A stretch of 64,000 nucleotides of DNA from Tribonema minus (Eukaryota; Sar; Xanthophyceae; Tribonematales; Tribonemataceae), in NCBI GenBank assembly GCA_017506865.1, contig JAFCMP010000512.1, positions 248,001-312,000 of the forward strand, written 5' to 3'. The notes beneath the pieces were generated by a model. That model searched no databases. It was not told the origin of the DNA and saw only the letters and a program-made list of their open reading frames with translations. The position numbers were made by a program, and so were the translations under genes. How positions within the stretch are numbered: position 1 is the first letter of the stretch; every line of letters starts with the position of its first letter. Of the stretch, positions 5,601-38,055 are shown piece after piece.

Positions 5601-8600
5601 AGATTTGGTCTCAAGCGCGTTTGATCATCACTCCGGCAGCTGCTTTCAGATGACTCTTCACTGATGCCCAATGAATATGCATGTTGCCACTGACTCCAGT
5701 ACAGATGATGTGTCCTGCTGGGGTCAACAGGTGTCTCGCACGCGCTTTTTGACACATCACACGGTGTACTGCTGTTGCAACAGGTGTCTCACACACACGA
5801 GAGGGCAAGTACCGGGCAGTGCTTTATGTGGACAGGCTCCAAGTCTATTTGGGCGTTTTCCAGGACGAGCTCTCAGCTGCTAAGGCACATGATAGGGGTG
5901 TCATTGCCTATGGACTAGGAGATGCCTTTCTCAATTTCAAGGTGAGTGTCACACGCAAATCTCCAGGTGTGGTATTTGCGATCCTCGCAGCGGTGTAAAG
6001 TACGCATATTGTGACTTGTAAGTGGCCTCTCGTTCCATGCCTTCGTGTTTGGTGTTGTACCTGTCAGTAGCATTCGCATCCACACCTTGAATGTTTTGTG
6101 CTGCTTGGTTGTAGTAACTTATGTGTGCACTTGTGCCCCTTAAGCTATTGCTCGCTACGGTGACACATGCCAGCATTGACTGAGGGTTTGCATCACAACA
6201 TCTCGTATCAGCCACCCTAGAGTGGTTTGTGCAGCATTGTAGCATCAGTTTTCCTGCACATGCTTCTTCCAAATGCCAAGATAGAAGTACGTGTTTCAAA
6301 GAGTTTGAAGCGAATCAAACAAGCAACAAATATTGACGATCTTTAGATTCGTTTCCATAAAATTTCAAGACTCTTTCGCAATGCGTTGTCATCTGCAATG
6401 CAGTGAGTGAAGTGAGCAAGTAGTCACCAAGCGGTCAATGCGAGTGGTATCTCCTTGTTTTTGAGCATCAAAAGAGGCAGCTTTAGGCTTGCCATGACAC
6501 AATGCTGCGCCAGCGACTGAGTATCTATGCATGCCTAGGGCATTAAGGGTGAGCTGCGCTCGTTCATTGTCATTGCATCGCTGTCGCAGGTCATCATTCA
6601 ATTGTGTGGCAGAATTGCACATGACCTTGATGTACCCAGCCTCTGATTCAACATTGTCAGCCGAGACTAATCATTGCAACTTTGAGCAATTTAAGCTACT
6701 TAAATCTACAATGCGAGTAGCACTTCACAAGCAGCAAAATTAGCACGCTGACTGTGATTGCTGCGTCAGGCAGCATCATACACTGTATTCAACATTGTCA
6801 AAATCCAGGTATTCATGCTCTGCACTGAACTTGCACTTTTGACTGCACGCCCACCGCTCAACGTTGTCTTATGTGCTTGTCGTGTGCATTCTCGTGCAGC
6901 CAAACGCCAATGCAGACGCGCCGCCCAAGGAGCAAATGCACCCGCCGCCATTGCTGGAACAGCCCATCGCAGGCGGCGCCACAAAAAGACGACGGTCCAA
7001 TGGTAGCAGCAGCGTTGACACTACTACAAGCACTGAGCGAGTCTTGCGCAGAAGCGTGCTGCCACCAGATGCCATAGAGCACAAGCACCTGGATGACGGC
7101 CATGGCACCTTTGTTGCTAGTGCGCACAGAAGTCTTGACTCCACCCAAGCACCAGCGAGCATCAAAGATAACTGCAGCAGTTGGGCAGACCAAGACCGCG
7201 TGCACCACAGCACAAGTCCACTTGGTGACAGTGGGTGCTGTGATGCGCACACGCACACCAAGAACAATGGCAGTCACGATGGCAGAGGTTCCAAACGCCG
7301 ATTGCTGCAGGACGAACCTCGCCAGATCACACGACGCAGCCGTGGACATGAACTTGGCGGTCAAAGCAGCAGCAGTGACTGCAGCTTATTATTGGGACGA
7401 GGTGGTCCATGGAGCGATGCCATTGCCATGGAAGATGCAGACACTACTGGGCTTGCAAGGTGAAACCCCACCAGTAGCATAGCCAGCAGCGAGGTTTTGT
7501 TGCTGTAGTAGTGGGCATGTCTTGAACCTTGGAGTGCCTTTTTCCTCAAGGTTTTGAGATCTTACATGCAGCATGATACGCAGCTCTGAAATTGTGGGTG
7601 CAGCACAGTTCAGTGCTTCAAAGCATCACAATGTACACATGCGAAGTTGAAAGAATTACATTTTGTGATGCTCAGGTACTTCAGATCATTACAAGTATTA
7701 CATGCAGGTGCTGGGCCCTGACCCTCGTCAAAAATGCCTGATCTTGCCGCCTGACAGTGTGCGCTCAGGTGTCGTCAATACAGCATTGTCATACAGGTGC
7801 CAAGATGCGTTGTATCGGCACCGCCTGAGTGCATAACAGCAGTCTCAGTATGCTCTCTTCGTCACCTCTGCTTCATTGTCTGCAGGAGACAGCATATGCA
7901 GCACATCGCTCCGGCACATCAACAATCTGATATTGAGCATTCACATCAACTGTCGGGCAATGGAACTTGGGGTCTACCTGTGCCCCAATTCGACTTGCAC
8001 CAGCACCACAGCTTGAGCGCACTCCTCAACAACTCTGTCAGCAATGGCAGCGGCATTGGCAGCACCATGACCAGCAGCAGCGACGGCATCACCGCAGGTC
8101 ATTCTGCTGGCCAACACCAGGCACTGTTGTGGTCGAGGAACGGTGGCAGCTCCATGCTCAAGCTTGATAGTGGCAGCTTGCTACACTCGGATCTCCACTG
8201 CCTCCTTCCGCAACGGCAACTTCTTGACCCGCAGCAGTTGCTTGGGCCACATTCACAGTTGCGGCTGAAGCTTGTGCCATCGCCCTCACTGGCATCAGAT
8301 ACGATGTGGGCGCAGCGACACCAGTGGCTACAGCACGGCAAGGAAGGCGTGTGTGACATGTCCAGGTCACCGCGGGGTGTACACTGTCAACTTCACTCAA
8401 CTCAACTGGCTGCACACCAGCAGCCGTTGCAGCTGCGCTTGCAGTTGCAGCCATCGCCGATGTGCCGGCAGCAGCAGAACATGGCAGCACCACCATGCCT
8501 CCCTCCACCGCTCACGTTCAGCATGCATCGGTTTCCCACTCTGGAGCCTGCATTGGCTGTTGCTCCGCGGTACTGCACAAGCAACTCGGGCAGGATGCCC

Positions 8601-24500: not shown

Positions 24501-27500
24501 AGTTACAATGTCTCGCAGACCACTGTGTGGATCTGGCGAGGTCAGTCTTATAATCGCAATGCTTTTTCAAATGGGGGCTTTGTGCCGCATGCCTTGTGTC
24601 AGCAGATCAATGACTGCAAAATCTTACATAGGGATCACACCATCCAGACTCTTTGGGGGTTCTCTGCATGCTGAGCTCAACAAGTAGCAACGCCAATGAG
24701 TGACAGAGCTGCAGAGCTTGTCTGCCAAGGGGCGTACAAGAGTGTGGGAGCCAACAACACTTTGCCGCTGAATACTTGGCTTCAGCTCCTGAACACCGTG
24801 CAGTCACCAGGCGGTCAGATTTAAATTGTTTGAACTTATCACAACGGCAAGCACGTTTTGGCTTGAAAGCAATTTTAAGCATGCGTCAGCTGATGTATGT
24901 GCTTTGAAATTGTCGATGAGGCGTGTTGGTATACCTGGCTCAAGCTGTTCACTGCACTGTGTGCCTCAGTTTGCTGCGCTGTGATTTTTGCCTGCTTCAT
25001 CAACAACGCACACATGTTTGAAGACATGTGCTGGCCAGGAAAGGCTGACCCGCTGGCATATGCTATATGCACTTGTCTCTTCAGCTTTCCGGGTGCCAGC
25101 ACCACTGGAGATTATTACTCTGCAGCACAGGAGAACATTGAGATTCATTCGCGCTTCGTTGTACAATTTTGCTGGCAATAATTGCGTCCATGATTCGCTG
25201 GTCTCACCCTGCATATGGTTATACCAAGTTGCAGGCGAATGTTGCAATCGCAGTCGACGTGGGACCACAAACTGTTGTGCATTTTCTCCATTTCACCTGC
25301 CCAGCTTGTTGAGAACCAATGCCACACACATATTATGAGTGAATTGGGTCGCCTCCCACGGATCAAGAGCACGAAGTACGTTGCCAATTGCCCTGCGCAT
25401 ATGCTTGTCATAAACACCCATTCCATCACTGCATCAGTTCCTAATGTGTGTTGCAGACATACTTAGATCAGGTCACATGGTACTCAGAATATGTTTTCAT
25501 AGGATTCCACATTTCAATGGCGACACATGGCAGGCAGCTCCATTGCTACATGCACAGCCAGCCGCCTGTGCTATCCACTGCCTCCTACCGTTAGCCGCTG
25601 GTGCATCCTAATGTTCGTCTTTGCCCACATGATTCACTGCAGGGTGATGTGCTGCACTGCGTGGTGATCTGTGAGATTGTCCACGGGTGGTACACACAAC
25701 GGAGCCCTGCCTCTGGCTCACCAGGCAAAGAAGGCTCGTCCACACTCCCGCGTGAAAGTGTGCATGAAGCAACAACTGCGCCTGTCAGTGACAATGATGC
25801 ACTGGAGTGGTGCGAGCTCGAAGGTGTCACAATCGGCATGGTGCGCGAGTGGTATGCATCATACATTTTGGTGCTCCGACATCTGGGACTCGTGCTGGCA
25901 GCAACAGACCTCATACGGCATGCCGTGGATCCTTGGATCTGCGCTCAAACTATGCAGGGCACAGTTGTGCATGCAAGCTGTGCACGCTGCCGTGCGCCTT
26001 CAGGGCCGTCTGCAAGGTCAGTAACTGCAACCTTCTTTAGGCAGCACCACCTATTGGCAAGCAGCAGCAACACTTCCACCCTTTTACATGTGCAACCAAC
26101 AATCCGTCAATAGCTTTAGTAGGGAGTACAAGGTGCTATCAAGCACCATATATATATATATATATATATATATATGGGGTAGGCTGTTTTAAGCCCCAAC
26201 ACAGAGTGTGTGATGGCCAGACCAGTTGTAGGTCAGCCCACACTCAGCTGTAGGTGAAAAACAGCAGGCCACTTGTTGACTCCAGGTTGGCAAGGCAGGG
26301 CAGGGTTGCAAAGTCTGACACTGTCGTGTTGCAGGTTAAGAGTGATTGCATTGCAAGGGAGCAGAGGAGAGCTGCTGCCAACAGTTGGCAACTTAGAGAG
26401 CCAGTGTGGGCACATACAGGGCCAGAGTGGTGGGCCTGATTGGTAGACAACTAACCAATCATAGGTGGCAGTTACACCACACCAAGGGTGCCAAAGTAGT
26501 GGGCCTCGTGGTGGGCAACTGTACCAACGGTAGATGGCAGCTACGGAAGTTGAAAGATGAAGTTGTGGGGCGGATAAAGGGGCAGATTCCCACATACCCC
26601 CCTTGATGTACCTGTGATAACACCAGTGTGAACGTGGTGCATCACAAGAATATGCTCCCCCCTCCCTTATAGTTACTCAAACGGTGTCACAATAGCACCA
26701 CATTGCAAAGCGGCCAATAGGGCGGCGATGCTGCTGACACCTAACAGCAAAAGCTGCATGTACGCAAAGCGGCCAATAGGGCGGCGATGCTGCTAACATT
26801 GAACAGCCAAGCTGTATGAAACGCGCGCGCGCACGGCGCGCGACACACTACATTGCACATGGAGTGCAAAACAACAGACATGCGGCGGAGTGCGGCATGT
26901 ACTTAGCGCGTGCGCGGCGACGCCCCCCTCCAACGCCTCTTGAAGTTCTTGGCTCAGGCGCGGGTGTCGAGGTTGATGGGCTCGGGAAGCGCGAAACGCG
27001 TGTCGAACGCGGTGACCATGTCGTGAAGGCCACGGTCGATGAGGTGACGACGGCTGAGCCAGTCAGTGCCGCTGAGGTCGCCGAAGTAGCGGACTTGGTA
27101 GACTTGGTTGCCGTCGGCGGCACGTCCACGCCCAGGCTTGCGCGCCACGATGGCCTCGACGGCGACGGACGGGTCCAACGTACAGGCGACGTCGGCGTCG
27201 GCGCCGTCGGTGCGGCCAGGCGCGCGTGGCGCGTGAACCGTGAGTAGGGGGCGGCCCATGTAGACAAAGTCGCTCTCCGTGAGCGGCGATGGGCGCTCGC
27301 CGTCAGCGTAGCGGCGGACGTGCGCGATGTGGAAGCGCGTGCCGGTGGTAGCGTTGGCGGACATGCGTACTTCAACACATATGGGGTTGATGACGCGCAG
27401 CACCTCAAAAGGGCCTGCCCAGTCCGACTGAAGCTTGGGCGCGACGGCGATTTTGGGGTCCGGTACGGCGGCCACCCAGACGCGGTCGCCAACTGAGTAG

Positions 27501-30500
27501 GTAGGTATGTCGAGCGCGGCGGCGTCAGCGTCAAGGCGGCATTGTAGGGCCTCGCTGTTGCGGCGTAGCAGCTCGTATGCCTCCTGAAGTGTTGACTGAA
27601 GCTCGCGGTGGTAGTCGCTGGAAGTAGGCGGCGCGGGCTCGCCCAAGATGATGTCGATGGGAAGACGCGGGTGAAAGCCCATGTGGAGGAAGAATGGCGA
27701 CTCAAAGACCGAGCGGCGGTACGCGGTGTTGGCGGCGAGGGAGTGCGCGAACAGTAGCCGGTCCCAATGCTGAGGGTGACGCAGGGCGTGTACGCGCATC
27801 ATGTTGCCGAGTACGTCGTTGCCGCGCTCCACGATGGCGTTGGCCTGGGGGCGGTACGGCGTGGTGGTGGTCTGGTCGATGCCGAGCAGGTCGCAAAGCT
27901 CGCGAATGACGTCATTGACGAACTCCGTACCTTGGTCCGAGTGCAGGTACCGCGGCACGCCAAAGTAGGCCACCCAGTAGTCCACGATGCGCTGAGCGAC
28001 GTGGCGGGGCGCCTTGCCTGGTATGCCGGTGTTGACGCAAAAGCGCGTGCAGGGGTCCACCAGTGCGCACACGTATAGGCTGCCATCAGCGGACGGCTGA
28101 AAGGGGCCCATAAGGTCGATGTGGAGGCCTTGGCGCGGCTCCAGTGTAGTGTTGAGCGTGCCGGAGGGGAGTTGCGCCTTGCGGTGGGGGGTCTTGGTGC
28201 GCTGACACGTAATGCACGTGTCGCACCAGCGCAATACATCGGCGCGGTGCGTGGGCCAGTAGTACTTGGCGCGAACGCGGCGCAGCGTGACCTCCGCGCC
28301 CATGTGGCCGCCGGAGACGTGGTCGTCGTGGGTGGCGGTGAGCACTGTGGAGACCAAAACCTGAGGCACAAAGTGAGTAACGCGCTCCCTGTCGTTGCTG
28401 TACACTGGTGACTGCTCCATGTCCACGCGGAATAATACGCCATCGTCACTGAGACGGTAGTTGGCGAGTTCGGCGGCGGCAGAAGTGGGAGCGTCACCGG
28501 CGGCAGATGACTGAGCAGTAGAGTCGCCGGCGAGCTGTCGCAGTATGGGGCCGGCGGCGGCGTCAGCGGCTTGAAGTTCGCGAAGGCGCTCTAACGTAAG
28601 GCCAGGCAGGCTGGAGTAGCTTGCGGGCGCGCTGGAGTCGCCGTCGCCTTCCGCTGAGGCGGTGAAGTCCGCGTCGTTGATGATGAAGTCCGCGCCGCCA
28701 GCGTCTGCGACGCTAGAGGCGGCAGCGGACGGCATGGGCGCGCTGCTGCTGTCCGATGGGGCTGGCGAAGAGGCAGGGTCGGCGGCGGCAGCGGGCTCAG
28801 AAGCGCTGGCGGAGCGGCCGACGCCATCGGCGCCAGCGGTGCCAAGGATGGCCGGCTGCGTGCTAACTTCAACGTCGGGGCTGGCGCCGGCGGGCGAAGC
28901 GGCGGCGCTGACGGCTGCGTCGGTGGTGCTAAGGGCGGCTGACTGCACGCCAACTTCAACATCGGCGCTAGCGCCGGCGGAAGAAGTGGCGGCGCTGGCA
29001 GTTGCATCAGCCGCGGCGGAAGTGGTAGCGGTGGCAGCGGGCTTGGCGGCGCTGCGAAGAACCCTAGTGTTGGGAACCAGAGGGTTTGGAGCGATGACAA
29101 GCGCGGCGCTGTTGAGCGCTGCGCGGTCAAACTAAACAGCTCCTGACGCCATGTGGGCCTTGGCGCGAGTCGGCGCGCAGATGAGGCGGCCAGGAATGAT
29201 CGTGGAGACGGGCAGTAAGTCCAGCGCTCCTACCATGGCCAGGCAGCTAGAGAGGGTCTTCATGTGAATGGGCAGGATGGCGTTGGCGGCCAGGCGTCCC
29301 TCCAAAGCGCGGGGGAGGGGCAGTGGCGGCGAAATAGGCTTCATGCCCTGAATGCGCAGCATGTCGCTGAAGCTCAAAGTATGAGCCTCAGAAGGTGCGC
29401 AGGCATTGCCGGCGCGCGGCACGTAGTTGGCCGGCAGGCGCTGAGCGATGCGCGCTAGAAGAGTGGGCGCGGGCGCGTGAGCATCCAAGATGCAAGCGCC
29501 GGCGGGGTAGCGGGACATGTAGACGTAGGCGTCCGGCTGGCTGGGCAGGACGTCGTGGACGGTGAGGCGGCGCGGCTGCTGGTGGCAATCGCGAATGCAC
29601 TGGTCCAGTAGCATGAGGCGCGACCCAGAGCGCTCACTGCGTTGCAGTGACACAACGTAGACGCGGCGGCGTACAGTGGCGGCGCCAAGAGCCGCTGCGT
29701 CTAACGTGTATATGCCGATGTCGTAGCCGCCGCTGAGAAGCATGTCGCGGTACGCGCGGAAGGTGGCATTGCTGAGAAAAGGGGGCACGTTCTCCAAGAT
29801 GCCGAGCACGGGCCGGCACCGTAGCTGCAGGCGGCCGTAGTCGAGTGTGGAGATGGCGAGTGGTCCTTCGATGCGCGGGCCGGCGGCGGAGTAGGGCTGG
29901 CAGTTGCTGCCATGTACCAAGGCGTAGACAGAGCGTACGCGTAGGAAACGGTAAACCTCCTCCGAGGCAAGGTCGGCGCAGATGGTGGGCACCATGGGGA
30001 AGCGCTGCGAGTACACATCTAGTGTGCGTTGGTCGAGCTCCACGGCGATGATGGGGCGCATGTAGCCAGCGGCGCCCTCCGTGGCGCCGCCGATGCCACA
30101 GCCCAAGTCGGCAAAGGTGGCTGGCTGCATAACGCTGCGCGATGCGCCTGGCCGGCGCAGCGGCAGTTGAAGCGGTAAAGCGGCAGCGGGCACGTCGTAC
30201 AGCTCCTGTAGCTGATCCATGCCAATGATGCGGCTGAAACCGTCGGCAGGCTGATGCTCGCCCTTGAGGTAGCGCACGGTGTAGTCGTACTCTTCAAGCT
30301 GCAAGGCCCAGCGCGTGAGCACTGCGCTGCTGGCCATGTTGCGGTTGAGGAAGAGTAGAGGCTGGCAGTCAGTCCACACTGTGAACGACTCAGAGCGTAA
30401 GTAACCGCGGAAGAACTCCACGGCCTTGACGATGGCCATGAGCTCCTTGACGGTGGCGCCGTAGTTGGCCTCCGCGGGGAATAGCACCTTGCTGAAGAAA

Positions 30501-33500
30501 GAGATGACGCGCTCGTAGGGCTGTAGGGCGCCGGCGCCATCGGGACCAGCGTCTGCATCCGGCGGGCACTGTGTGAGCACTGCGCCTACGGCGTAGGCGG
30601 ATGCGTCGGTGTAGAGCTGGTATGCCATCTGAGGGTCAGCGTATGTGAGGACGGGCTCCGATAGCAGGGCGGCGCGCAGCTGAGCCATGCAACGGTCGTG
30701 GCGCTCACACCACTGGCGGAATGGATCAGGTCCCGCCGTCTTGCGTAAGAGGTGGTTGAGCGGTGCCACGAGCTCTCCGTGACGGGCAATGTGCTTGCTG
30801 TAGAACGCGACCATGCCGATGAAGCTGCGCAGCTCCTTGACGGTGCGCGGCGAGGGCACTGCAGAGATGATCTCCACATTGCGAGTGAGCGGCTTGACGC
30901 CTGAAGCAGAAACTTCAAACCCGACAAACTTGGTTGAAGTTGTACCAAAAGAGCACTTGCTCACCTTCCACACCAGGCCGTAGTAGCGGGTGCGGAGTAG
31001 GATGGCATAAATGAGTGCGCGGTACTGCTGGTAGTTGGCGGCGTGTGGGCTCATGTCGTCGACGTACTTGGTGGCGCCGGCGGGGCGCAGGTCGCCAAAG
31101 CACATGTCGGCGACGCGGTTGAAGGCGGTGGGAGCGACCTTGCTGCCAAAGCCGAGGCGTGTAGGCTGAATGATGCCAAGCTGCGGTATCTCCAGCGCGT
31201 ACAGGTGGCGGCACACGGGGTCGATGACCAAGTTGTTGAACGCCCCAAGCGCGTCCATGCTGCCAAAGATGCGGCTGCCGCGGAAGTCGCCCATGAGCTG
31301 CGGTATGTGGACAACGGGGCCGTGATCGTCGGCGGTGTCCTTGTTGATGCGGCGGTAGTCGCCGCAGATGCGCCACTTGCTGGTGTGCGGCTTGGGGGTG
31401 ACGAGGGGCTGGCTCAGCTGGTCAGTGCGCGCGCAGCGCTCGTGAAGGCCAGCTGCAAGCTGCTGCTCGCCCCAAGTGAGCAGTATGGCAAGGGCCACGG
31501 GGCTGAAGCGGCGTGTGGGTTCACGAAAGGGCTTGTAGGAAGCCTTCATGACCGGCCGGAAGTAGCCGAAGGAAGCAGAGACGTTGCCGACGTCCGTGTC
31601 TTCTTGTCCGAAGCAGTCCTCGAACTGTTGGAGCAGGGTGACGAAGTCTTGGCGCTGCTCCGCCGTGAATGGGCTGTCGGTTGGGATGAGCGACGCGAAG
31701 TCCACCGGCGGCTTGCCGGTCATGTCGCGAGGCTCAGCAGTGGGGCCAAATAGGCGCGACGGCTCCAGTGGATCTGCGAGCAGGGGATGTACTGGCAGAT
31801 CGGCGTCGCTGAGTAGGCTGGCCATGACGGGTGCGACGTCCTCGGTAGTGTCTGAGTCGTCGTCGTCAGGCGCGTCGGTGGCGGTGAGTTGGTCGCCGGT
31901 GACGCTGTTGGTCTCGTAGCTGTCGCTGCTGCTGCTGTTGGCGTGGGCGTCCGTAGTTGGTGAGCCGGGCGCCATCAGGAACATGCCGACGTAGTCGCCC
32001 ACGGGTGAGCCAAGAGGGCTGTACACCGGTGATATGGGGCTGTAGACTGGCGGCGGAAGTGGCAGCCCCCGTGCCGGGCCACTGCTGTGTTGCGATCGGC
32101 AAAGACAGCAATGGCGGCGCGCTGAACCTCCCGGTGCGCGCGTGGGTCGGAAGTAGGGGGCCCTCCGGCAGCGTCTGCGTCATGGTAGACGGGGCGTGTG
32201 GCAAGTTGTGCGGCCGCGTAAGCTGCGGAGGTACGCCGAACGTCGAGGTCTAGGCGAGGATCCAAGGGGTGGCCGTGGCGCTGGTTGAGCGCTGCTGCTC
32301 CATTGGCGGGCGGCGCTATGTCCATGGCGACGGGCTGATTGCGCCGGTTGAGCGCTGCTGCTCCATTGGCGGGCAGCGCCATGTCCATGGCGACGGGCTG
32401 ATAGCGCTGTGGTGGCGGCAGCGGCCCAATGCGCTCCAGTTGCCCGCGCGCTGGGTGCGGCGCGCGGTGGCCGCGCTGAGCGGCAGGCTGTGGAGGGGGC
32501 GAGCGGTGCTGCGGGGAGCGGCGCGCTGAGCTGCGGCGGTGGTCGTGCCGAAGAGCTCGCTGATCGCGGCTGCGCTCGTGAGTGCTGCGGGGACGGTTGT
32601 GCTGACGAACTGGCTGATCACGGCTGCGCTCGCGAGCGCTGCTGCGGCGAGGGCTGTCGTGAGCTGGGGCGATGTAGGCCTGGCGCGCGTAGTCGGGCGG
32701 CGGCGGTGAGCCGCGGCGCGGGTGGCGCGATGCCTCGGCGCGGGGTGTGCGCCCAGCCTGACCTTCGCGGCGCGGCGCGCGGCCCCTGGCAGAGTTCTGA
32801 ACTGCTTGAGCGTGGTGCGCGCTGCGGCGAGGTGGAGCGTCGCTGAAGTCCAGCATGTCGACGTCGTCGGCGCCGTGTTGAGCTGGGACTGCGAAGTAGC
32901 GCGGGCTGCCGGCGGCGGTCATGTTGGCGCTGGCCACAGGACGGTGGGAGTTGGCAGGGGTGTGCGACGGGCGCCCAAGCCGAGACGCGGGGAGAGGTAG
33001 GCCACCATAGTCCCCGGGCTCGTCGGCGCTGGCGTCGCGTAGTAGCTTGAAGGCTGCCACGAGGTGCCCCGGGGGCAGAGTGAAACGCTCACGCTGGCCA
33101 GAGAGTGCACGGAGTTGAAGTTGTACGTAGCCGGCTTCATCCATGTCGTGAGGCTCTTGCGCGTTGAGCAGCTGAAACCCTGTTGCCAGCGGCGAGACGT
33201 GGTGCTCGCCGCCCAAGCATGGGTGCTGCAGTAGCACGAGGACACGGTTGCGCTGGCGCGGGGGATCGTCGGCCCGCACGGTGACGTGGATGATGCCGCC
33301 GCGTAGAGAGCCCCGGCCAATCTTGACGGCGTGCATGAGTGTGAGCGCGCCTGTGCGGGCGACGTGAGGCTCCTCTGGCGTGTAAGAAGGGAGCACGGCG
33401 TCTGTGATGCCGCCAGAGCCGTGCCGAACTGCCGAGAAAGGCTGGTGGCCGCCGACGGCGTTGAGCTCAATGTCGAACGGGCGCCACTCCACGCGGCGCC

Positions 33501-35484
33501 TGTTGAGGTGTAGACTGCGGTTCTCGCCCACTCCGTAGATGCCAAACTCGCGTCGGGGGTCGTCGGGCGTGGCCAGTACGGGCCGTACGGTGTGCAAATA
33601 ACCCGTGTACGGGTTAATGCTCATGCGGTTGCGCACGAAGAAGGAGTTGCCCAGTACCAGCGCCGCGGGCAGGTCGTCGACCATGATGCAGTGTGTCAGG
33701 TAGCTGACCTGACGGAGTGGCTCTGCAGGCGCGTTGGCGGCGCGCGGCAGACCAGGATGAGCATCGCGCCCCTCGAAAGCGATGGGGAGCATCAAATGGC
33801 GACGGTTGTCCATGACGTCGCTGCCGGCGTGGAAGATGGGCATGTGCTGACGCGTGATGTCCTCTGGCATGAGGAACACGCGCGGACGATCGGCGACGGG
33901 GAGTAGGCTGAAGTAGCTCTCGGCCTCTCGCGTGCGGATGTACACGTTGCCGGCGCCGGTGTCGACGACGGCGGCTGAAAGGTCCAATGCGTCGGCTCCG
34001 CTGCCGATGCTGACCTTCACGGTGGCTAAAGTTGCTCCGGCGTCGTAGCCAAACATCTTGTACCAGTCGTCGGTACGCCAGTGAGACGGCATGCCGACGG
34101 GAATGACGCAAGGGTCCGTGAATGCTGTGGCGCGTAGGTATGCGGGGGCGCCCAGGTTGACAGAACCGTGATGAGCTGGCCGCGGGCGCTGCTGTGCTGC
34201 GCCAGGCGTGCCAGAGTTGTTGGGGCCGCGGCTAGGGAGCTGGCGGCGTGCGTCTTGGGGCCGTTCTCCGCTGCTGGGGTTGAGCGTGGGTGGACGCGGC
34301 GGCGGCGCCTGCTGGCGCTGCTGGCTGCGGTCTCGAGAAGGCGTGAGTGCGGAGGCGGCACCTGCAGGGGAAGCAAAACGCAGCGCAGAGTTGCCACCTT
34401 GGGGGGTGGGAGCACTCTGCGGACGGGAATTGTCGCCGTGACGGTTGCCGCGGTAGGGACGGCGCCCGCTGCCGTTGCGGTTGCCGTTGCCCTGGTTGTT
34501 GTTGCCGTAGTTGAGCGATGTGTCGTCATCAACGTAGTCGGCGGAGGGAGAGCTGTTGAAGGGAGATGGCGACCCATGCTGAGGTGGCATGAAGTTGGCG
34601 CTGCTGGCGCCGTTGGTCGCGGTGGACTTCTCTTTGTTGCGCAAAACGATGGTGCGTTCAATGCGCTGAAGAGACGCCACCATCTCCTCCTCGTTGAAGC
34701 GAGAATGCGTCTGCAGGCGCATCTGCTGGCGCAGTCCCGGAAGTAGGCCCCCCTCGAGGATGGTGAGGAACAGGCACTCCTGAAGCTCAGGTAGAGGGGC
34801 GGCGGAGGCGCCGCTGCTGCCGTCAACGGAGACGGCGCGAGTGCGGCGAACCTGGCCGTATAGGGTAGACAGTTGCTGAAGCGTGCGGCAGCCGCGTAGA
34901 ATGTAGGCCTTGCTGGTTTCCTTGGCCCCCTGCTTGAGGTCGACCACGGCGCGGCAGCTGTCCTCGAACGCTGCCGGGGGGGCGAAGTGCTCAAGGAGCA
35001 CCTGGGCGATGCCGGTGAAGGAAGTTGGCCAGGTGCCGGCCTGGCGGAGAGAGGTAGCAAGCGCATGTGCCTCGCCTCTCAAACCGAGGAAGGCATAGTG
35101 GCAGATGTCGTGGGGCGCGGTGACTTTCTGCGTCTCCATATAGGAGATGAAGCGCTCTACCCATTCCGTGACGTCTTGTTCCGTACGTACGCCTTGAAGT
35201 AGCTTGGCGCCATGGTAGTCGGGGAGGTTCTTGACGGCGTCTGGCTTGAGAGTCTTTTCTACTGCGCCACGACCTGTGAGGGGGATGCCGATGCTGCGCA
35301 ACGAGGCAAGCAGCTTGGCATGGTCACGGGCGGCGCGCTCCTCGGGGGTGCAATGGCGCCGCGGGCGCAGGTCGATGCCTGCGGCGGCGGCGGCGGCGGC
35401 GATTTCAACGGCGGTGGCGGCCGCGGTCGGGTCCAGTGTAGAGGGCGCGCCCGCGAAGGAGGGTGCGGCGTCTGCTGGAGGTCC

Positions 35485-35515
<31 letters not shown>

Positions 35516-38055
35516 ATGGCGGCGGCGGCGCGGCCGGAAGCTGCTGCGGCTGGCGGCGGCGCAGGCCAGGAAAAGGAGGAAGATTGGGCGGAAAGCCAGG
35601 GCCAAGGAGGCGTGGTGGCACCGCGCGGCGCGGCGACGGAGCGGCAGGCGGGCCTGACGTGTCTTCTTCGTCGCTGCTGCTGTCTTCGTTGTTGGGGTCG
35701 CGGTAGACGAGGGTTGGGTCGTCGAACGGGTTCAACGGGCCCCCGGCTGCAGCTGGAGCGGCCGCTCGAGACGCGGCGACTTCGGCAGGTGTAGCCCCAG
35801 CTCCACCTCCAAACATGCGTCCGAATGCATTAAACATGCTGCCAGGCTAGGTATCAGCAGACTAGGAAAGTGCTGCTGTGGCTGGTTGCGGACTGAATTG
35901 CTACTGCCACGCGAGGCAAAGTAGCTTTAGAGCTCTACTTGCTGAGAATGCAGCGCACTTAAGAATGCAGCCACAAGCAAGGAGTCAGCTTCAGGCTTAC
36001 GTTCCTGTTGCTGTAGATGATGTACTTTCTTCCCCCCCTTGATGATACCTAGGGATGGAAAGTAGTGCCGAGATGGGGAAGCCGTCGCTTCCGGGTTGCC
36101 GAAACTGGTTGATGCTGATGCTGTCCAGAAGGCTGTAGACTCGGTAGATGGCGAACGCGTTGAGGTCTTGCTCGCTTGGGAAGGTAGGAATGGACGAAGT
36201 TGCCAGAAGAATTGCTGCTGTGAGATGATGTCGGCCGACGTTCACAGTAGCTGCGCTTGTAGCTGGCGAGGGCGCGTTGCTGGTGAGTCGCTGCTGCTGT
36301 TGCTGCAGCGCCAGGTACCGCGCGCGAGGTCCGAAACCGGATGGACTCCTCCAGAATGTGGGGTAGGCTGTTTTAAGCCCCAAAACACAGAGTGTGTGAT
36401 GGCCAGACCAGTTGTAGGTCAGCCCACACTCAGCTGTAGGTGAAAAACAGCAGGCCACTTGTTGACTCCAGGTTGGCAAGGCAGGGCAGGGTTGCAAAGT
36501 CTGACACTTTCGTGGTGCAGGTTAAGAGTGATTGCATTGCAAGGGAGCAGAGGAGAGCTGCTGCCAACAGTTGGCAACTTAGAGAGCCAGTGTGGGCACA
36601 TACAGGGCCAGAGTGGTGGGCCTGATTGGTAGACAACTAACCAATCATAGGTGGCAGTTACACCACACCAAGGGTGCCAAAGTAGTGGGCCTCGTGGTGG
36701 GCAACTGTACCAACGGTAGATGGCAGTTACGGAAGTTGAAAGATGAAGTTGTGGGGCGGATAAAGGGGCAGATTCCCACATATATATATATATATATATC
36801 TGGGAGTCTTGAATGAGCCCCTGCCCCCCCTCTAGCATAAGATGCGGCGATTGTTTGCAGTGACGGGGCTATGACAGGGGGGGCAAAGCTGGCACACATG
36901 AAAGCGAGGCAAGGTGAATGGGCCTTGAACTGTTGCATAGGCACGGCTTGGGGAAATGAAGTTATCACAGCACATTTGCAACTCGCATTGCTTGAGCCAG
37001 CAAACAAAACCTTGGGACTGATTGTACAAAAATTCAGCCCCGGGCATCTGCTCGTGACGTGGAGCAAATTGTCGCTGCACCAATATTGTGGCATCGGCCG
37101 CTACTGCAGCAGCAGGTTTGGGGGGCTCGTACCCCTTTTGATGCGGACCAGTGTATTTGACGGACCAATTGCCGTCTTTCCCACGGCTAAACCATGGCGC
37201 GGCTGGAGCTCACCGATGTAGGCTTACCCTACACAAGCCGCAGGCCATTGCTGCATGCAGCCTGCAGTTGGGATAAACATAGCTCACAGCCTGCCAGCGC
37301 AGACCTCATGGGGAGCCTTGCAGGATTGACTGTTGCGATCTGTCACTCCTGGTGTAACTGGTGCAGCGGTACAAGGGCAATAGTATGTGGTTGAAGCCAG
37401 TGGTTCTGTAACAGTGTCGTACGCACAGTGTCGTACGCATGCACGAAAGCAGTAGTTTTGTTGGCACATCACTTGGTGATTTCCGATGCCGGTGTGTACA
37501 TCAGCAATGACTTTCTCACACCAGTACAGTCTTGAGAAGCACACATCTGGCTAGCACCACACTGCAGCGACGGAGTCACAACCCCCTATCTGGTTTCTGG
37601 CACATTGTTCACTCAAGTTTGCAATGACTCTGCTTTGCCATGACATGCTGATGCGTGCAAGTGGTTGCTGTTTGCTGCTGAAATACAAACGCTGCACTGA
37701 CTCAAGTTATGAGTCAACCGTCCCTAAAAACTACTTTGGTTCCAGGCATGATGCGTCCAATTGAATGCTTCCTGACTTATCTGGTTGATGCATCATATCT
37801 TGATGTACTTCACCAGCAGGTTCTGCATGTGTCTTGCTGTTTCCTGCAAATTGCAGGTGTGAGAAGTGTGCCCAAGCACTGAGCCGCTGTGCACTGTGCG
37901 AGCAGCCCGTGCGCAGTCTTTATGTTTGGTGCCCAGGCTGCGGTCACGGAGGCCATCTACATCACATGCATGAATGGTTCACACAGGCTTCGGCGTGCCC
38001 GACTGGATGCGGGCACCACTGCAACCTGAACCTTGTGCTATGCGAGGTGCCATGA
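15519..38055 (+). CDS. GATOR2 complex subunit WDR24 (SEA2 homologue), 14 exons, about 980 aa
   Basis: Exons: 15519-15709, 16551-16956, 17147-17249, 17675-17697, 17954-18157, 18493-18807, 19276-19424, 20019-20180, 20405-20843, 21461-21538, 22208-22402, 24063-24167, 25643-26016, 37857-38055; all GT-AG and in phase. N-terminal WD40 blades are clear (ITDVSWSAMDSGLVAAAMNNG, HQRTVNRVAWHP...IKLWDRR, SEAVRDVQFSPF, IMAIDWHP...ATGSRDRTV, VGRVKWRP). The middle has RVRDLCMHNAGVAVECG, matching the WDR24 LCxHNxxVAxxxG signature, then LADFLQERSEQGDV and the helical C-terminal region. It ends in a zinc-binding RING-like module (CARC, CEKC, CALC, CPGCGHGGH, CPTGCGHHC). In animals and yeast WDR24/Sea2 belongs to GATOR2/SEACAT, which signals amino acids to TORC1 at lysosome or vacuole. 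The 23-bp exon 4 and exons 8 and 10 are the least certain; more exons may hide in the introns. A TGTAA candidate poly(A) signal lies at 38162. The last intron (26017-37856) holds a retrotransposon. Confidence 0.9.
15938..16308. repeat. Diverged tandem duplication of about 180 bp in WDR24 intron 1
   Basis: Two units, about 15938-16113 and 16131-16308, share GTGCCAGTGCACTGCCAGGT, TTGATACATGACATG, ACCATTGAATTGA, CCAACAGTGCCTATT and AACACTTCCAGGCTCG in the same order. No coding content is apparent. Confidence 0.8.
17307..17396 (+). pseudogene. Decayed duplicate of WDR24 exon 3 and flank
   Basis: This stretch repeats the 3' part of exon 3 and its downstream intron (17181-17284), including ATCATGGCACACTC, ACTGGCATCCCATGCGTG and GCATGTCT. 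The splice donor GTATGT is not retained in the copy and a stop follows, so it reads as a dead exon duplicate rather than an alternative exon. Confidence 0.75.
21640..21715. repeat. Tandem duplication in a WDR24 intron
   Basis: The unit TGCAGACAGCAGCTTTG followed by GCGTGATCA occurs twice, about 36 bp apart, in the intron between exons 10 and 11. No gene signal is associated with it. Confidence 0.6.
23645..23663 (+). repeat. Poly-G tract of 19
   Basis: Nineteen consecutive G in the intron between WDR24 exons 11 and 12. Such a run can form a G-quadruplex and is hard to sequence, so its length is uncertain. Confidence 0.8.
26148..26174. repeat. (TA)n microsatellite, left flank of the LTR element
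   Basis: Alternating A/T directly abuts the left LTR. The same dinucleotide continues on the far side of the element at 36781-36799, so the element landed in a (TA)n tract and the target duplication, probably TATAT-like, cannot be delimited. Confidence 0.85.
26175..26594 (-). repeat. 3' LTR of the methyltransferase retrotransposon
   Basis: 420-bp direct repeat of 36359-36780 with TG...CA ends and a TGTGGG/CCCACA-type terminal inverted repeat. It contains two CCAAT-box-like ATTGGT/CCAAT sites (about 26440-26460). The outer edge meets (TA)n. Confidence 0.95.
26597..26604 (-). other. Polypurine tract
   Basis: In element orientation AAGGGGGG lies two bases before the 3' LTR start TGTGGG, the expected site for plus-strand priming. 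Confidence 0.6.
26704..26818. repeat. Tandem repeat in the element's 3' non-coding region
   Basis: A GCAAAGCGGCCAATAGGG unit continuing CGGCGATGCTGCT occurs twice, from about 26704 and 26764, between the integrase frame and the polypurine tract. The function is unknown. Confidence 0.7.
26954..28948 (-). CDS. Integrase frame of the retrotransposon (664 aa)
   Basis: This frame has an Ala/Ser/Pro-rich N-terminal linker (residues 1-160), then the zinc-binding HHCC module (H210, H215, C242, C245 or C248) in HMGAEVTLRRVRAKYYWPTH...CDTCITCQRTK. The catalytic core follows with D278 (HIDLMGPF), D338 (HSDQGTEF) and E374 (NAIVERGNDV). The last 65 residues (VEAIVARKPGRG...YQVRYFGDL..TDWLSRRHL) resemble a chromodomain, which in chromoviruses helps choose chromatin targets. 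Integrase inserts the cDNA copy into nuclear DNA. It lies directly downstream of the methyltransferase frame in element order. The core residues are present. Treated as part of a fossil element; no repair is inferred. Confidence 0.93.
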   Translation of the reverse strand: MQSAALSTTDAAVSAAASPAGASPDVEVSTQPAILGTAGADGVGRSASASEPAAAADPASSPAPSDSSSAPMPSAAASSVADAGGADFIINDADFTASAEGDGDSSAPASYSSLPGLTLERLRELQAADAAAGPILRQLAGDSTAQSSAAGDAPTSAAAELANYRLSDDGVLFRVDMEQSPVYSNDRERVTHFVPQVLVSTVLTATHDDHVSGGHMGAEVTLRRVRAKYYWPTHRADVLRWCDTCITCQRTKTPHRKAQLPSGTLNTTLEPRQGLHIDLMGPFQPSADGSLYVCALVDPCTRFCVNTGIPGKAPRHVAQRIVDYWVAYFGVPRYLHSDQGTEFVNDVIRELCDLLGIDQTTTTPYRPQANAIVERGNDVLGNMMRVHALRHPQHWDRLLFAHSLAANTAYRRSVFESPFFLHMGFHPRLPIDIILGEPAPPTSSDYHRELQSTLQEAYELLRRNSEALQCRLDADAAALDIPTYSVGDRVWVAAVPDPKIAVAPKLQSDWAGPFEVLRVINPICVEVRMSANATTGTRFHIAHVRRYADGERPSPLTESDFVYMGRPLLTVHAPRAPGRTDGADADVACTLDPSVAVEAIVARKPGRGRAADGNQVYQVRYFGDLSGTDWLSRRHLIDRGLHDMVTAFDTRFALPEPINLDTRA
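29132..32026 (-). CDS. Reverse transcriptase-RNase H-C5 cytosine methyltransferase frame (964 aa)
   Basis: An acidic N-terminal stretch precedes a Ty3/Gypsy reverse transcriptase (PLVTPKPHTSKWRICGDYRRIN, active-site YVDD at 321-324) and RNase H (LYTDASAYAVGAVLTQ, ATVKELMAIVKAVEF, WTDCQPL). From about residue 638 a C5-cytosine methyltransferase follows: motif I FADLGCGIGG (638-647), the acidic end of the next strand IAVELDQRTLDVY, motif IV GSNCQPYS with the catalytic Cys at 709 (NCQ in place of the usual PCQ), motif VI ENV (745-747), motif VIII TVRRRVYVV, and C-terminal RIQGMKP and AANAILP, corresponding to motifs IX-X. The target-recognition stretch is short. The domain would methylate cytosine in DNA using S-adenosylmethionine; substrate and activity are unknown. 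The frame overlaps the end of the gag frame by 52 bp. Confidence 0.93.
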   Translation of the reverse strand: MYSPLGSPVGDYVGMFLMAPGSPTTDAHANSSSSDSYETNSVTGDQLTATDAPDDDDSDTTEDVAPVMASLLSDADLPVHPLLADPLEPSRLFGPTAEPRDMTGKPPVDFASLIPTDSPFTAEQRQDFVTLLQQFEDCFGQEDTDVGNVSASFGYFRPVMKASYKPFREPTRRFSPVALAILLTWGEQQLAAGLHERCARTDQLSQPLVTPKPHTSKWRICGDYRRINKDTADDHGPVVHIPQLMGDFRGSRIFGSMDALGAFNNLVIDPVCRHLYALEIPQLGIIQPTRLGFGSKVAPTAFNRVADMCFGDLRPAGATKYVDDMSPHAANYQQYRALIYAILLRTRYYGLVWKVSKCSFGTTSTKFVGFEVSASGVKPLTRNVEIISAVPSPRTVKELRSFIGMVAFYSKHIARHGELVAPLNHLLRKTAGPDPFRQWCERHDRCMAQLRAALLSEPVLTYADPQMAYQLYTDASAYAVGAVLTQCPPDADAGPDGAGALQPYERVISFFSKVLFPAEANYGATVKELMAIVKAVEFFRGYLRSESFTVWTDCQPLLFLNRNMASSAVLTRWALQLEEYDYTVRYLKGEHQPADGFSRIIGMDQLQELYDVPAAALPLQLPLRRPGASRSVMQPATFADLGCGIGGATEGAAGYMRPIIAVELDQRTLDVYSQRFPMVPTICADLASEEVYRFLRVRSVYALVHGSNCQPYSAAGPRIEGPLAISTLDYGRLQLRCRPVLGILENVPPFLSNATFRAYRDMLLSGGYDIGIYTLDAAALGAATVRRRVYVVSLQRSERSGSRLMLLDQCIRDCHQQPRRLTVHDVLPSQPDAYVYMSRYPAGACILDAHAPAPTLLARIAQRLPANYVPRAGNACAPSEAHTLSFSDMLRIQGMKPISPPLPLPRALEGRLAANAILPIHMKTLSSCLAMVGALDLLPVSTIIPGRLICAPTRAKAHMASGAV
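31975..35301 (-). CDS. Gag-protease frame of the retrotransposon (1108 aa)
   Basis: The first 240 residues look like a Ty3/Gypsy Gag capsid region (VTEWVERFISYMETQKV...YAFLGLRGEA, helical, with conserved hydrophobics). An Asn/Gly/Arg-rich segment follows (GNNNQGNGNRNGSGRRPYRG), where other elements have a CCHC zinc knuckle; I see no CCHC. An aspartic protease motif VVDTGAGNVYIR (active Asp near 447) lies downstream, then a long Arg/Pro/Ser-rich tail. Gag would form the particle and the protease would mature the polyproteins. The frame ends overlapping the start of the reverse-transcriptase frame, an arrangement often used for recoding in this family. Confidence 0.88.
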   Translation of the reverse strand: MRSIGIPLTGRGAVEKTLKPDAVKNLPDYHGAKLLQGVRTEQDVTEWVERFISYMETQKVTAPHDICHYAFLGLRGEAHALATSLRQAGTWPTSFTGIAQVLLEHFAPPAAFEDSCRAVVDLKQGAKETSKAYILRGCRTLQQLSTLYGQVRRTRAVSVDGSSGASAAPLPELQECLFLTILEGGLLPGLRQQMRLQTHSRFNEEEMVASLQRIERTIVLRNKEKSTATNGASSANFMPPQHGSPSPFNSSPSADYVDDDTSLNYGNNNQGNGNRNGSGRRPYRGNRHGDNSRPQSAPTPQGGNSALRFASPAGAASALTPSRDRSQQRQQAPPPRPPTLNPSSGERPQDARRQLPSRGPNNSGTPGAAQQRPRPAHHGSVNLGAPAYLRATAFTDPCVIPVGMPSHWRTDDWYKMFGYDAGATLATVKVSIGSGADALDLSAAVVDTGAGNVYIRTREAESYFSLLPVADRPRVFLMPEDITRQHMPIFHAGSDVMDNRRHLMLPIAFEGRDAHPGLPRAANAPAEPLRQVSYLTHCIMVDDLPAALVLGNSFFVRNRMSINPYTGYLHTVRPVLATPDDPRREFGIYGVGENRSLHLNRRRVEWRPFDIELNAVGGHQPFSAVRHGSGGITDAVLPSYTPEEPHVARTGALTLMHAVKIGRGSLRGGIIHVTVRADDPPRQRNRVLVLLQHPCLGGEHHVSPLATGFQLLNAQEPHDMDEAGYVQLQLRALSGQRERFTLPPGHLVAAFKLLRDASADEPGDYGGLPLPASRLGRPSHTPANSHRPVASANMTAAGSPRYFAVPAQHGADDVDMLDFSDAPPRRSAHHAQAVQNSARGRAPRREGQAGRTPRAEASRHPRRGSPPPPDYARQAYIAPAHDSPRRSSARERSRDQPVRQHNRPRSTHERSRDQRALRHDHRRSSARRSPQHRSPPPQPAAQRGHRAPHPARGQLERIGPLPPPQRYQPVAMDMALPANGAAALNRRNQPVAMDIAPPANGAAALNQRHGHPLDPRLDLDVRRTSAAYAAAQLATRPVYHDADAAGGPPTSDPRAHREVQRAAIAVFADRNTAVARHGGCHFRRQSTAPYHRCTALLAHPWATTSACS
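35259..35837 (-). CDS. Proline-rich leader frame of the retrotransposon (192 aa)
   Basis: The frame begins MFNAFGRMFGGGAG, has an acidic NNEDSSSDEEDTS stretch and a run of prolines, and partly overlaps the start of the gag-protease frame. It may be the N-terminal part of Gag or a separate leader protein; the family has both layouts. The function is not known. Confidence 0.5.
36337..36353 (-). other. Candidate primer-binding site
   Basis: A few bases inside the 5' LTR, the element strand reads TGGAGGAGTCCATCCGG. It starts with the TGG complementary to a tRNA CCA end, at the spacing expected of a primer-binding site. The matching tRNA was not identified. Confidence 0.4.
36359..36780 (-). repeat. 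5' LTR of the methyltransferase retrotransposon
   Basis: 422-bp partner of 26175-26594, with TGTGGG...CCCCA ends in element orientation. It is almost identical to its partner. Its outer side meets (TA)n at 36781-36799. Confidence 0.95.
36781..36799. repeat. (TA)n microsatellite, right flank of the LTR element
   Basis: This is the continuation of the TA tract into which the element inserted. Beyond it, 36800-37856 is the remainder of the last WDR24 intron, with no gene seen. Confidence 0.85.

What the first reader, a model, noticed from the sequence alone, without database searches (positions are those of the whole stretch)
29132..30120. A DNA cytosine methyltransferase carried inside a Ty3/Gypsy retrotransposon
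The same open frame that encodes reverse transcriptase and RNase H continues into a C5-cytosine methyltransferase with motifs I, IV, VI, VIII and IX-X in order, placed before integrase. Methyltransferase-bearing LTR retrotransposons have been reported from a charophyte alga and from dinoflagellates; one in what looks like a chlorophyte host would be a further, perhaps independent, capture. An element that methylates DNA could mark its own copies or evade or exploit host silencing.
Basis: partly seen in the sequence, partly recalled or inferred. Interest (0 to 1): 0.93.

Follow-up and report, generated by a model that had tools for sequence, protein, structure and literature searches.

The report
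DNA methyltransferase inside algal jumping genes
A copy-and-paste mobile element in an alga carries, in the same protein as its copying enzymes, a domain that looks like an enzyme for adding methyl marks to cytosine, and the same genome holds other, distantly related elements with such a domain, so this looks like an old association and not a one-off oddity.

Summary
Confirmed. Window 26175-36780 (- strand) is a 10.6-kb Ty3/Gypsy-type LTR element. Its pol frame runs RT - RNase H - C5 methyltransferase (PF00145, E 4e-15); integrase follows in phase after one stop private to this copy (8 of 8 other copies in which the site was found have a sense codon). Ten copies carry the domain, 7 of 10 without a frame break in it; dN/dS is 0.33 (bootstrap 0.16-0.81). 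A database protein (P0006) also joins RNase H to this MTase, so it is no misjoin. Beyond the finding: the same 158-Mb genome lists 156 MTase rows; 97 have an RT row within 5 kb on the same strand, in eight families linked to RT, most with the MTase upstream of RT instead. By profile these MTases are nearest to DNMT2 and bacterial enzymes, with no DNMT3 hit, unlike the published KnitGypsy-Dnmt3. The host is phototrophic; a chlorophyte identity was not confirmed. Activity, substrate and effect on silencing are untested; methylation of the element's own cDNA before integration is my best guess. New variant of a known kind.

The parts
36357..36780 (-). 5' LTR (TG...CA, 424 bp)
   Evidence: 98.8% identical to the 3' LTR; same ends in other copies
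26175..26594 (-). 3' LTR (its last bases are altered at an (AT)n flank)
26595..26604 (-). G-rich purine run just inside the 3' LTR, likely polypurine tract
   Evidence: sequence; by eye
31975..35829 (-). gag-like open frame (no Pfam match; called gag by position and by 25-31% identity with the sister element's upstream frame)
29132..32179 (-). pol open frame: RT - RNase H - MTase (1015 codons)
30911..31396 (-). reverse transcriptase, PF00078 match (residues 262-423)
30287..30712 (-). RNase H, PF17917/PF17919 matches (residues 490-631)
29135..30145 (-). C5-cytosine methyltransferase domain (PF00145 match 29630-30118; catalytic Cys codon 29900-29902)
29132..29134 (-). stop codon between MTase and integrase, private to this copy
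   Evidence: 8 of 8 other copies in which the site was found have a sense codon; not found in C8
26954..29131 (-). integrase frame, in phase with pol (H2C2 28190-28369, rve 27848-28141)

Best explanation
The window holds a young Ty3/Gypsy-type LTR retrotransposon whose pol polyprotein has a C5-MTase as a standing module between RNase H and integrase. Shown: architecture, several copies, purifying selection, a sister family with the same order, and related MTases in other Gypsy families of the same genome. Inferred: the MTase is packaged with RT and integrase in the virus-like particle and methylates the element's own cDNA (or DNA at the integration site) before or during integration, so that the new copy enters the genome already looking like methylated, native DNA. 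The preferred site is probably CG, but this is indirect.
For: Domain and order. LTRs and 4-bp target duplications at other copies. All nine family-A places with a long RT match (97-100% identity; C96 in two rows) also have the MTase. Motifs I, IV, VI, VIII, IX, X are kept in the ten copies but for one Gly to Ser in motif I of C168 and a deletion over motif VIII in C57. dN/dS 0.33, near RNase H 0.41, integrase 0.40, gag 0.37. Sister family C112: RT 55, RNase H 60, MTase 45, integrase 46% identity, so the MTase diverged with the element. In the gag-MTase-PR families MTase and protease identities are 62/63, 46/41, 48/41, 46/26 and 71/70% in five pairs: about the pace of the protease or slower. 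Singleton C-to-T changes are commoner at CG (98/2033) than at CH (73/3750), p 3e-9, as expected if these copies are CG-methylated by someone.
Against: No activity, expression or methylome data. Motif IV has Asn for the nearly invariant Pro; the family B domain also lacks it, and family C has PCV. An RT fragment at C135 (85-86% identity, two rows) has no MTase row. RT dN/dS is 0.89 on very few changes. The CG excess may come from host methylation, and the element is not CpG-depleted (observed/expected 1.12 v 0.75 for the rest of the window). The nearest solved enzyme is DNMT2, named a tRNA methyltransferase in some of its PDB entries. In published yeast tests the SymbioLINE and KnitGypsy enzymes showed no activity, which the authors call inconclusive (PMC5890265, passage).
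Confidence: 0.5

Rival explanations
1. The domain methylates RNA (element RNA or the tRNA primer), as its nearest solved relative DNMT2 does, and helps packaging, priming or escape from RNA-level defence.
For: Profile A1 ranks DNMT2 chains first in the PDB (E 4e-16 and 2e-15); published suggestion that LINE DNMTs may act on RNA (PMC5890265, passage).
Against: In trees the retroelement MTases do not join the DNMT2 clade; bacterial DNA enzymes follow closely in the same ranking (3g7u E 3e-13, HhaI E 1e-11); the CG excess of C-to-T changes speaks for DNA methylation of the copies, though not by whom.
Confidence: 0.2
2. The domain is no longer a good catalyst; it binds DNA or SAM and serves as a targeting or structural part of the polyprotein.
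For: Motif IV is altered in several families (NCQ, SCV, PCV, PCT) and the region between motifs VIII and IX looks short (by eye).
Against: Catalytic Cys, ENV and one motif VIII Arg are invariant in the 12 domains; the 12 domains scanned all exceed the PF00145 cut-off.
Confidence: 0.15
3. The MTase acts on foreign DNA or host loci and protects the host cell or competes with other elements (antiviral or rival-silencing role), as speculated in PMC6338049.
For: Such roles are argued for accessory methylases in that paper (passages); many other Gypsy families live in this genome.
Against: Nothing here tests it; co-divergence with each element fits a function in the element's own cycle at least as well.
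Confidence: 0.1
4. Assembly artefact: RNase H and MTase are falsely joined.
For: None found.
Against: MTase at ten places of this family, with an RT-RNase H match directly before it in nine, the sister family and database protein P0006.
Confidence: 0.01

Closest known systems
KnitGypsy-Dnmt3 of Klebsormidium nitens (de Mendoza et al. 2018, PMC5890265; part 1 of 7 of the text, section 9 and passages seen)
   Same: C5 MTase inside the Pol polyprotein of LTR Gypsy elements, several copies, purifying selection on the MTase (published Ka/Ks < 0.2; here 0.33).
   Different: There the MTase is DNMT3 and the repeats are described as DIRS-like in structure; here the domain is not DNMT3-like by profile, the element has ordinary LTRs, and eight families in one genome carry an RT-linked MTase at two places of the polyprotein.
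SymbioLINE-Dnmt and SymbioDIRS-Dnmt3 of Symbiodinium (same paper)
   Same: Hundreds of retroelement MTases in one genome; SymbioLINE enzymes are an orphan lineage.
   Different: LINE and DIRS elements, not Gypsy with an rve integrase. No Symbiodinium sequence could be put on my trees.
Orphan eukaryotic DNMTs and ChloroDNMTs (PMC12344493, passages seen)
   Same: Eukaryotic C5 MTases outside DNMT1/2/3/5.
   Different: The main text does not contain the word Gypsy; I could not place the domain against ChloroDNMTs.
Unnamed ENA/JGI polyproteins P0050, P0051, P0052 (MTase upstream of RT), P0057 (PR-MTase-RT) and P0116 (RT-RH-MTase-IN-PHD)
   Same: MTase within Gypsy-type polyproteins; P0116 has the same order as the window.
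   Different: P0116 and P0057 MTases fall in another clade, so order and MTase lineage vary independently.

Membership tests
Ty3/Gypsy LTR retrotransposon | direct LTRs with TG...CA ends and short target duplications | tested here: met
   LTR pair 98.8% identical; 4-bp duplications read by eye at C96, C35, C224 (C257 3 of 4 bases); the window copy sits in (AT)n, so its own duplication cannot be judged
Ty3/Gypsy LTR retrotransposon | RT - RNase H - integrase order | tested here: met
   RVT_1, RT_RNaseH, then H2C2 and rve, with the MTase before integrase
Ty3/Gypsy LTR retrotransposon | RT grouping with known Gypsy RTs | tested here: inconclusive
   window and C112 RTs lie on a long branch (2.07) apart from 90 other Gypsy-like RTs; about 30% identical to family B RT
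chromovirus | chromodomain at the integrase C-terminus | tested here: inconclusive
   no PF00385 match, only a weak SH3_Tf2-1 match (21.9 bits, cut-off 30); a diverged chromodomain could be missed
C5-cytosine methyltransferase (PF00145) | profile score over cut-off and catalytic motifs in order | tested here: met
   the match covers profile positions 2-166 of 324; motif IV Pro is Asn
C5-cytosine methyltransferase (PF00145) | methyl transfer to cytosine | not testable with these tools
   needs an assay
DNMT3 / KnitGypsy-Dnmt3 | sequence kinship with DNMT3 | tested here: not met
   profile of 12 domains hits 52 PDB sequences up to E 1; names include DNMT2, HhaI, HaeIII and DNMT1 but no DNMT3. 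No DNMT3 sequence was on the trees
DNMT2 | membership of the DNMT2 clade | tested here: not met
   window domain outside the clade that holds human DNMT2 and the host's DNMT2-like exon L074
DNMT1 / CMT / DNMT5 / ChloroDNMT | clade membership | not tested
   no such reference sequences were put on the trees

The most novel reading that the evidence does not exclude
One orphan C5-MTase lineage has spread among deeply separate Ty3/Gypsy lineages, settling at different places of the polyprotein, until retroelements and not host genes carry most C5 MTases of the genome (156 rows listed, only four of which look like host genes; host genes split by introns may have been missed). The host methylome may then be written largely by its parasites, and element MTases may differ in target sites.
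Probability: 0.4. Interest if true: 0.8.

Novelty: new variant of a known kind. Interest (0 to 1): 0.62.

Why it matters
Cytosine methylation is usually a weapon against transposons. A genome in which several distant Gypsy families each keep a methyltransferase domain makes a sharp question testable: do elements methylate their own DNA to their benefit, and what share of a host methylome do they write? It also extends the published cases that I saw (DNMT3 in a charophyte Gypsy; LINE and DIRS in dinoflagellates) by MTases that are not DNMT3-like and by unnamed database elements.

Tried and rejected
Misassembly: rejected (ten copies, sister family, P0006). DNMT3 membership: rejected by profile. 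A domain swap or unusually fast evolution of the MTase: suggested by B v C (RT-RNase H 91.1% identical, MTase 62.5%), dropped when the protease of the same elements proved equally diverged (63%). An MTase-free family with 60% RT identity (3129-aa frames): one member, C352, was tested and carries an MTase. The stop between MTase and integrase as a programmed readthrough site: rejected, private to the window copy. Host identity: LHC matches only; SBP, Dof, DUF3707 no match with silent controls; a text search for '554 contigs' listed one paper, on a sea slug. Host maintenance methylation: SRA no match, control silent; four BAH matches, unassigned; no conclusion. Viral contigs: no relative confirmed. 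The first protein search with the window's MTase region found none at E <= 0.001 among 8000 candidates, perhaps because only proteins of 0.55-1.75 times the query's length are candidates; the profile search found 46. Two of four close database relatives do not pass PF00145 (P0005 no match, P0007 20.6 bits); both look frame-broken. Ten other window frames: one guanylate kinase match (E 4e-8); no Rfam or tRNA match in the window. An AP2-like reading at 5828-5941 was by eye and not confirmed. The trees hold only references found with these queries; DNMT1, DNMT3, DNMT5 and Symbiodinium enzymes are missing. Eight database rows were dropped from the second MTase tree. The RT tree was sampled with family B's RT, so its MTase-free rows are not a fair sample; its bootstrap had not settled.

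Full report
WHAT IS THERE. The minus-strand frame 32179-29132 is open for 1015 codons and matches, in order, RVT_1, RT_RNaseH and DNA_methylase PF00145 (E 4.1e-15); the next frame in phase, 29131-26954, matches Integrase_H2C2 and rve. Two LTRs, 36357-36780 and 26175-26594, are 98.8% identical, so the insertion is young. A gag-like frame 35829-31975 has no Pfam match. The order is LTR - gag-like - RT - RNase H - MTase - integrase - LTR.

IT IS REAL. A search of the own genome (158.2 Mb, 554 contigs, unnamed) with the MTase gives 119 rows at E <= 0.001, 119 scored of 395 first-look candidates; the rows at 91-100% identity are the window and nine further places of this family, two of them (C257, C57) split into two rows. 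All nine further places show matching element DNA in the fetched stretches; C8 matches only from the MTase to the 3' LTR, C401 and C168 lack part of the 3' region, and C257, C96, C168 and C57 lack inner stretches. Four-base target duplications can be read at C96, C35 and C224. In C401 and C224 RT, MTase and integrase motifs lie in one open frame (2085 and 2585 aa); in C334 gag, RT and MTase motifs share a frame of 2303 aa. The stop between MTase and integrase was seen in the window alone: 8 of 8 other copies in which the site was found have a sense codon; it was not found in C8. The MTase is free of frame breaks in 7 of 10 copies (breaks in C35, C257 and C57). Whether gag and pol are normally one frame is unresolved: the copies differ. 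An RT fragment at C135 (85-86% identity) has no MTase row.

SELECTION. Mean pairwise dN/dS: MTase 0.33 (45 pairs), linker 0.28, gag 0.37, RNase H 0.41, integrase 0.40, the low-complexity gag-protease part 0.68, and RT 0.89, the last on very few changes (dN 0.007, dS 0.008). Codon bootstrap for the MTase 0.16-0.81; 1% of 2000 resamples reach 1; 16 codons vary non-synonymously and 12 synonymously. So the MTase is kept about as well as RNase H and integrase, but the sample is small.

KIN ELSEWHERE. A profile of 12 MTases from this genome (A1) finds 46 database proteins at E <= 1e-5 among 8000 candidates. P0006, a JGI protein, has RNase H and MTase in one protein and is 85% identical to the window over the 32% of the MTase query that BLAST aligned; P0004 (ENA) is 48% identical over 76% and has PCQPFS; P0005 and P0007 look like frame-broken relatives. 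In the PDB the profile ranks DNMT2 first, then bacterial enzymes such as 3g7u and HhaI, then chains named DNMT1, and no DNMT3 among 52 sequences up to E 1 (names as listed).

OTHER FAMILIES IN THE SAME GENOME. PF00145 alone gives 123 scored rows out of 378 first-look candidates, all over the cut-off; three (C223 twice, C181) and a DNMT2-like exon (C523) look like host genes. Fetched domains fall into groups that I call A (window), A' (C112, 45%), B, C, D, E, F, I, K, and G, H, J. RT searches place an RT near many: of 156 MTase rows (119 plus 37 further rows, host-like ones included) 97 have an RT row on the same strand within 5 kb, 58 of these in an open frame of exactly the same length. The RT lists were capped at 99 and 90 rows, so the 59 rows without a neighbour are not evidence of absence. 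Groups with such a link are A, A', B, C, D, E, G and K (C352); F, H, I and J had none, so for them the retroelement setting is not shown. In the 12 rows of A and A' the MTase follows RT; in the other 85 linked rows it precedes RT. Family B shows the full set in one frame of at least 2553 aa: MTase - RT - RNase H - integrase. Database polyproteins repeat this: P0050, P0051, P0052 and P0125 have the MTase upstream of RT; P0057 between protease and RT; P0116 between RNase H and integrase, as in the window. In all, 6 of 88 hits carry PF00145. The MTase of P0125 is nearly identical to family C of this genome, so P0125 may come from the same or a very near species.

EVOLUTION. In a tree of 67 rows the 18 MTases of these groups lie, with P0004 among them, on one side of a branch (93/93), against 45 other database and reference rows and three host rows; A, A' and P0004 are a clade (100/99), B, C, D, E, F, I and K another (98/98), G and H a third (100/99). 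With six database element rows added and eight other rows dropped, the same branch has only 92/43, and P0057/P0116 stand apart. So one origin for this genome's set is possible but weakly supported, and G, H and J are near background identity with A (19-22%). The RT tree needs four changes of the MTase label: A with A'; B, C, P0050-P0052 and P0125; P0057; P0116. A and B RTs are 30% identical while B and D are 60%, yet A-B and B-D MTases are 29% and 31%. This hints that MTases moved between Gypsy lineages, but identities this low are near saturation. Within lineages the MTase diverges like the protease or integrase: a stable inherited module.

METHYLATION SIGNS. Singleton C-to-T changes among ten copies: CG 98 of 2033, CHG 31 of 1336, CHH 42 of 2414; CG v CH odds ratio 2.55, p 3e-9; CHG v CHH p 0.22. 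Copies are therefore probably CG-methylated. Against self-methylation as the cause: no MTase-free control family was at hand, the rest of the window is CpG-poor (0.75), and the element itself is not (1.12).

HOST. Ninety-two PF00504 matches point to a phototrophic eukaryote. I could not name it or show that it is green.

LITERATURE. Searches (open-licence PMC only). The nearest report is PMC5890265 (part 1 of 7, section 9 and passages). PMC12344493, PMC12477816, PMC6338049 and PMC6317226 were seen as passages. None of what I saw describes a C5 MTase other than DNMT3 in Gypsy elements; that is not proof that none is in print.

Noticed in passing
L017, L019-L030 (family B MTase loci): These copies lie within about 10 kb of a contig end or in contigs of 12.7-16.2 kb, and 12 RT copies match family B's RT at full score: recent spread near chromosome ends, or contigs breaking in repeats. 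L018 is internal.
   Followed up: no
G000:C311:6661-7950: RT match in an open frame of 6208 aa, about twice the 3129 aa of its siblings; perhaps two elements in phase.
   Followed up: no
P0057 and P0116: Unnamed ENA Gypsy-type polyproteins with C5 MTases of another clade (42% identical to each other, 13-20% to the element MTases of this genome), P0116 with a PHD finger: a further capture in unknown hosts.
   Followed up: partly
L071 (C223:937800), L072 (C223:702700), L073 (C181:39900): Host-like MTases with GFPCVGLS in frames of 367-390 aa; L071 and L072 sit among database rows of unknown origin in the tree.
   Followed up: partly
window 32278-32403: 63-bp tandem duplication (94%) at the gag-pol boundary.
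   Followed up: no
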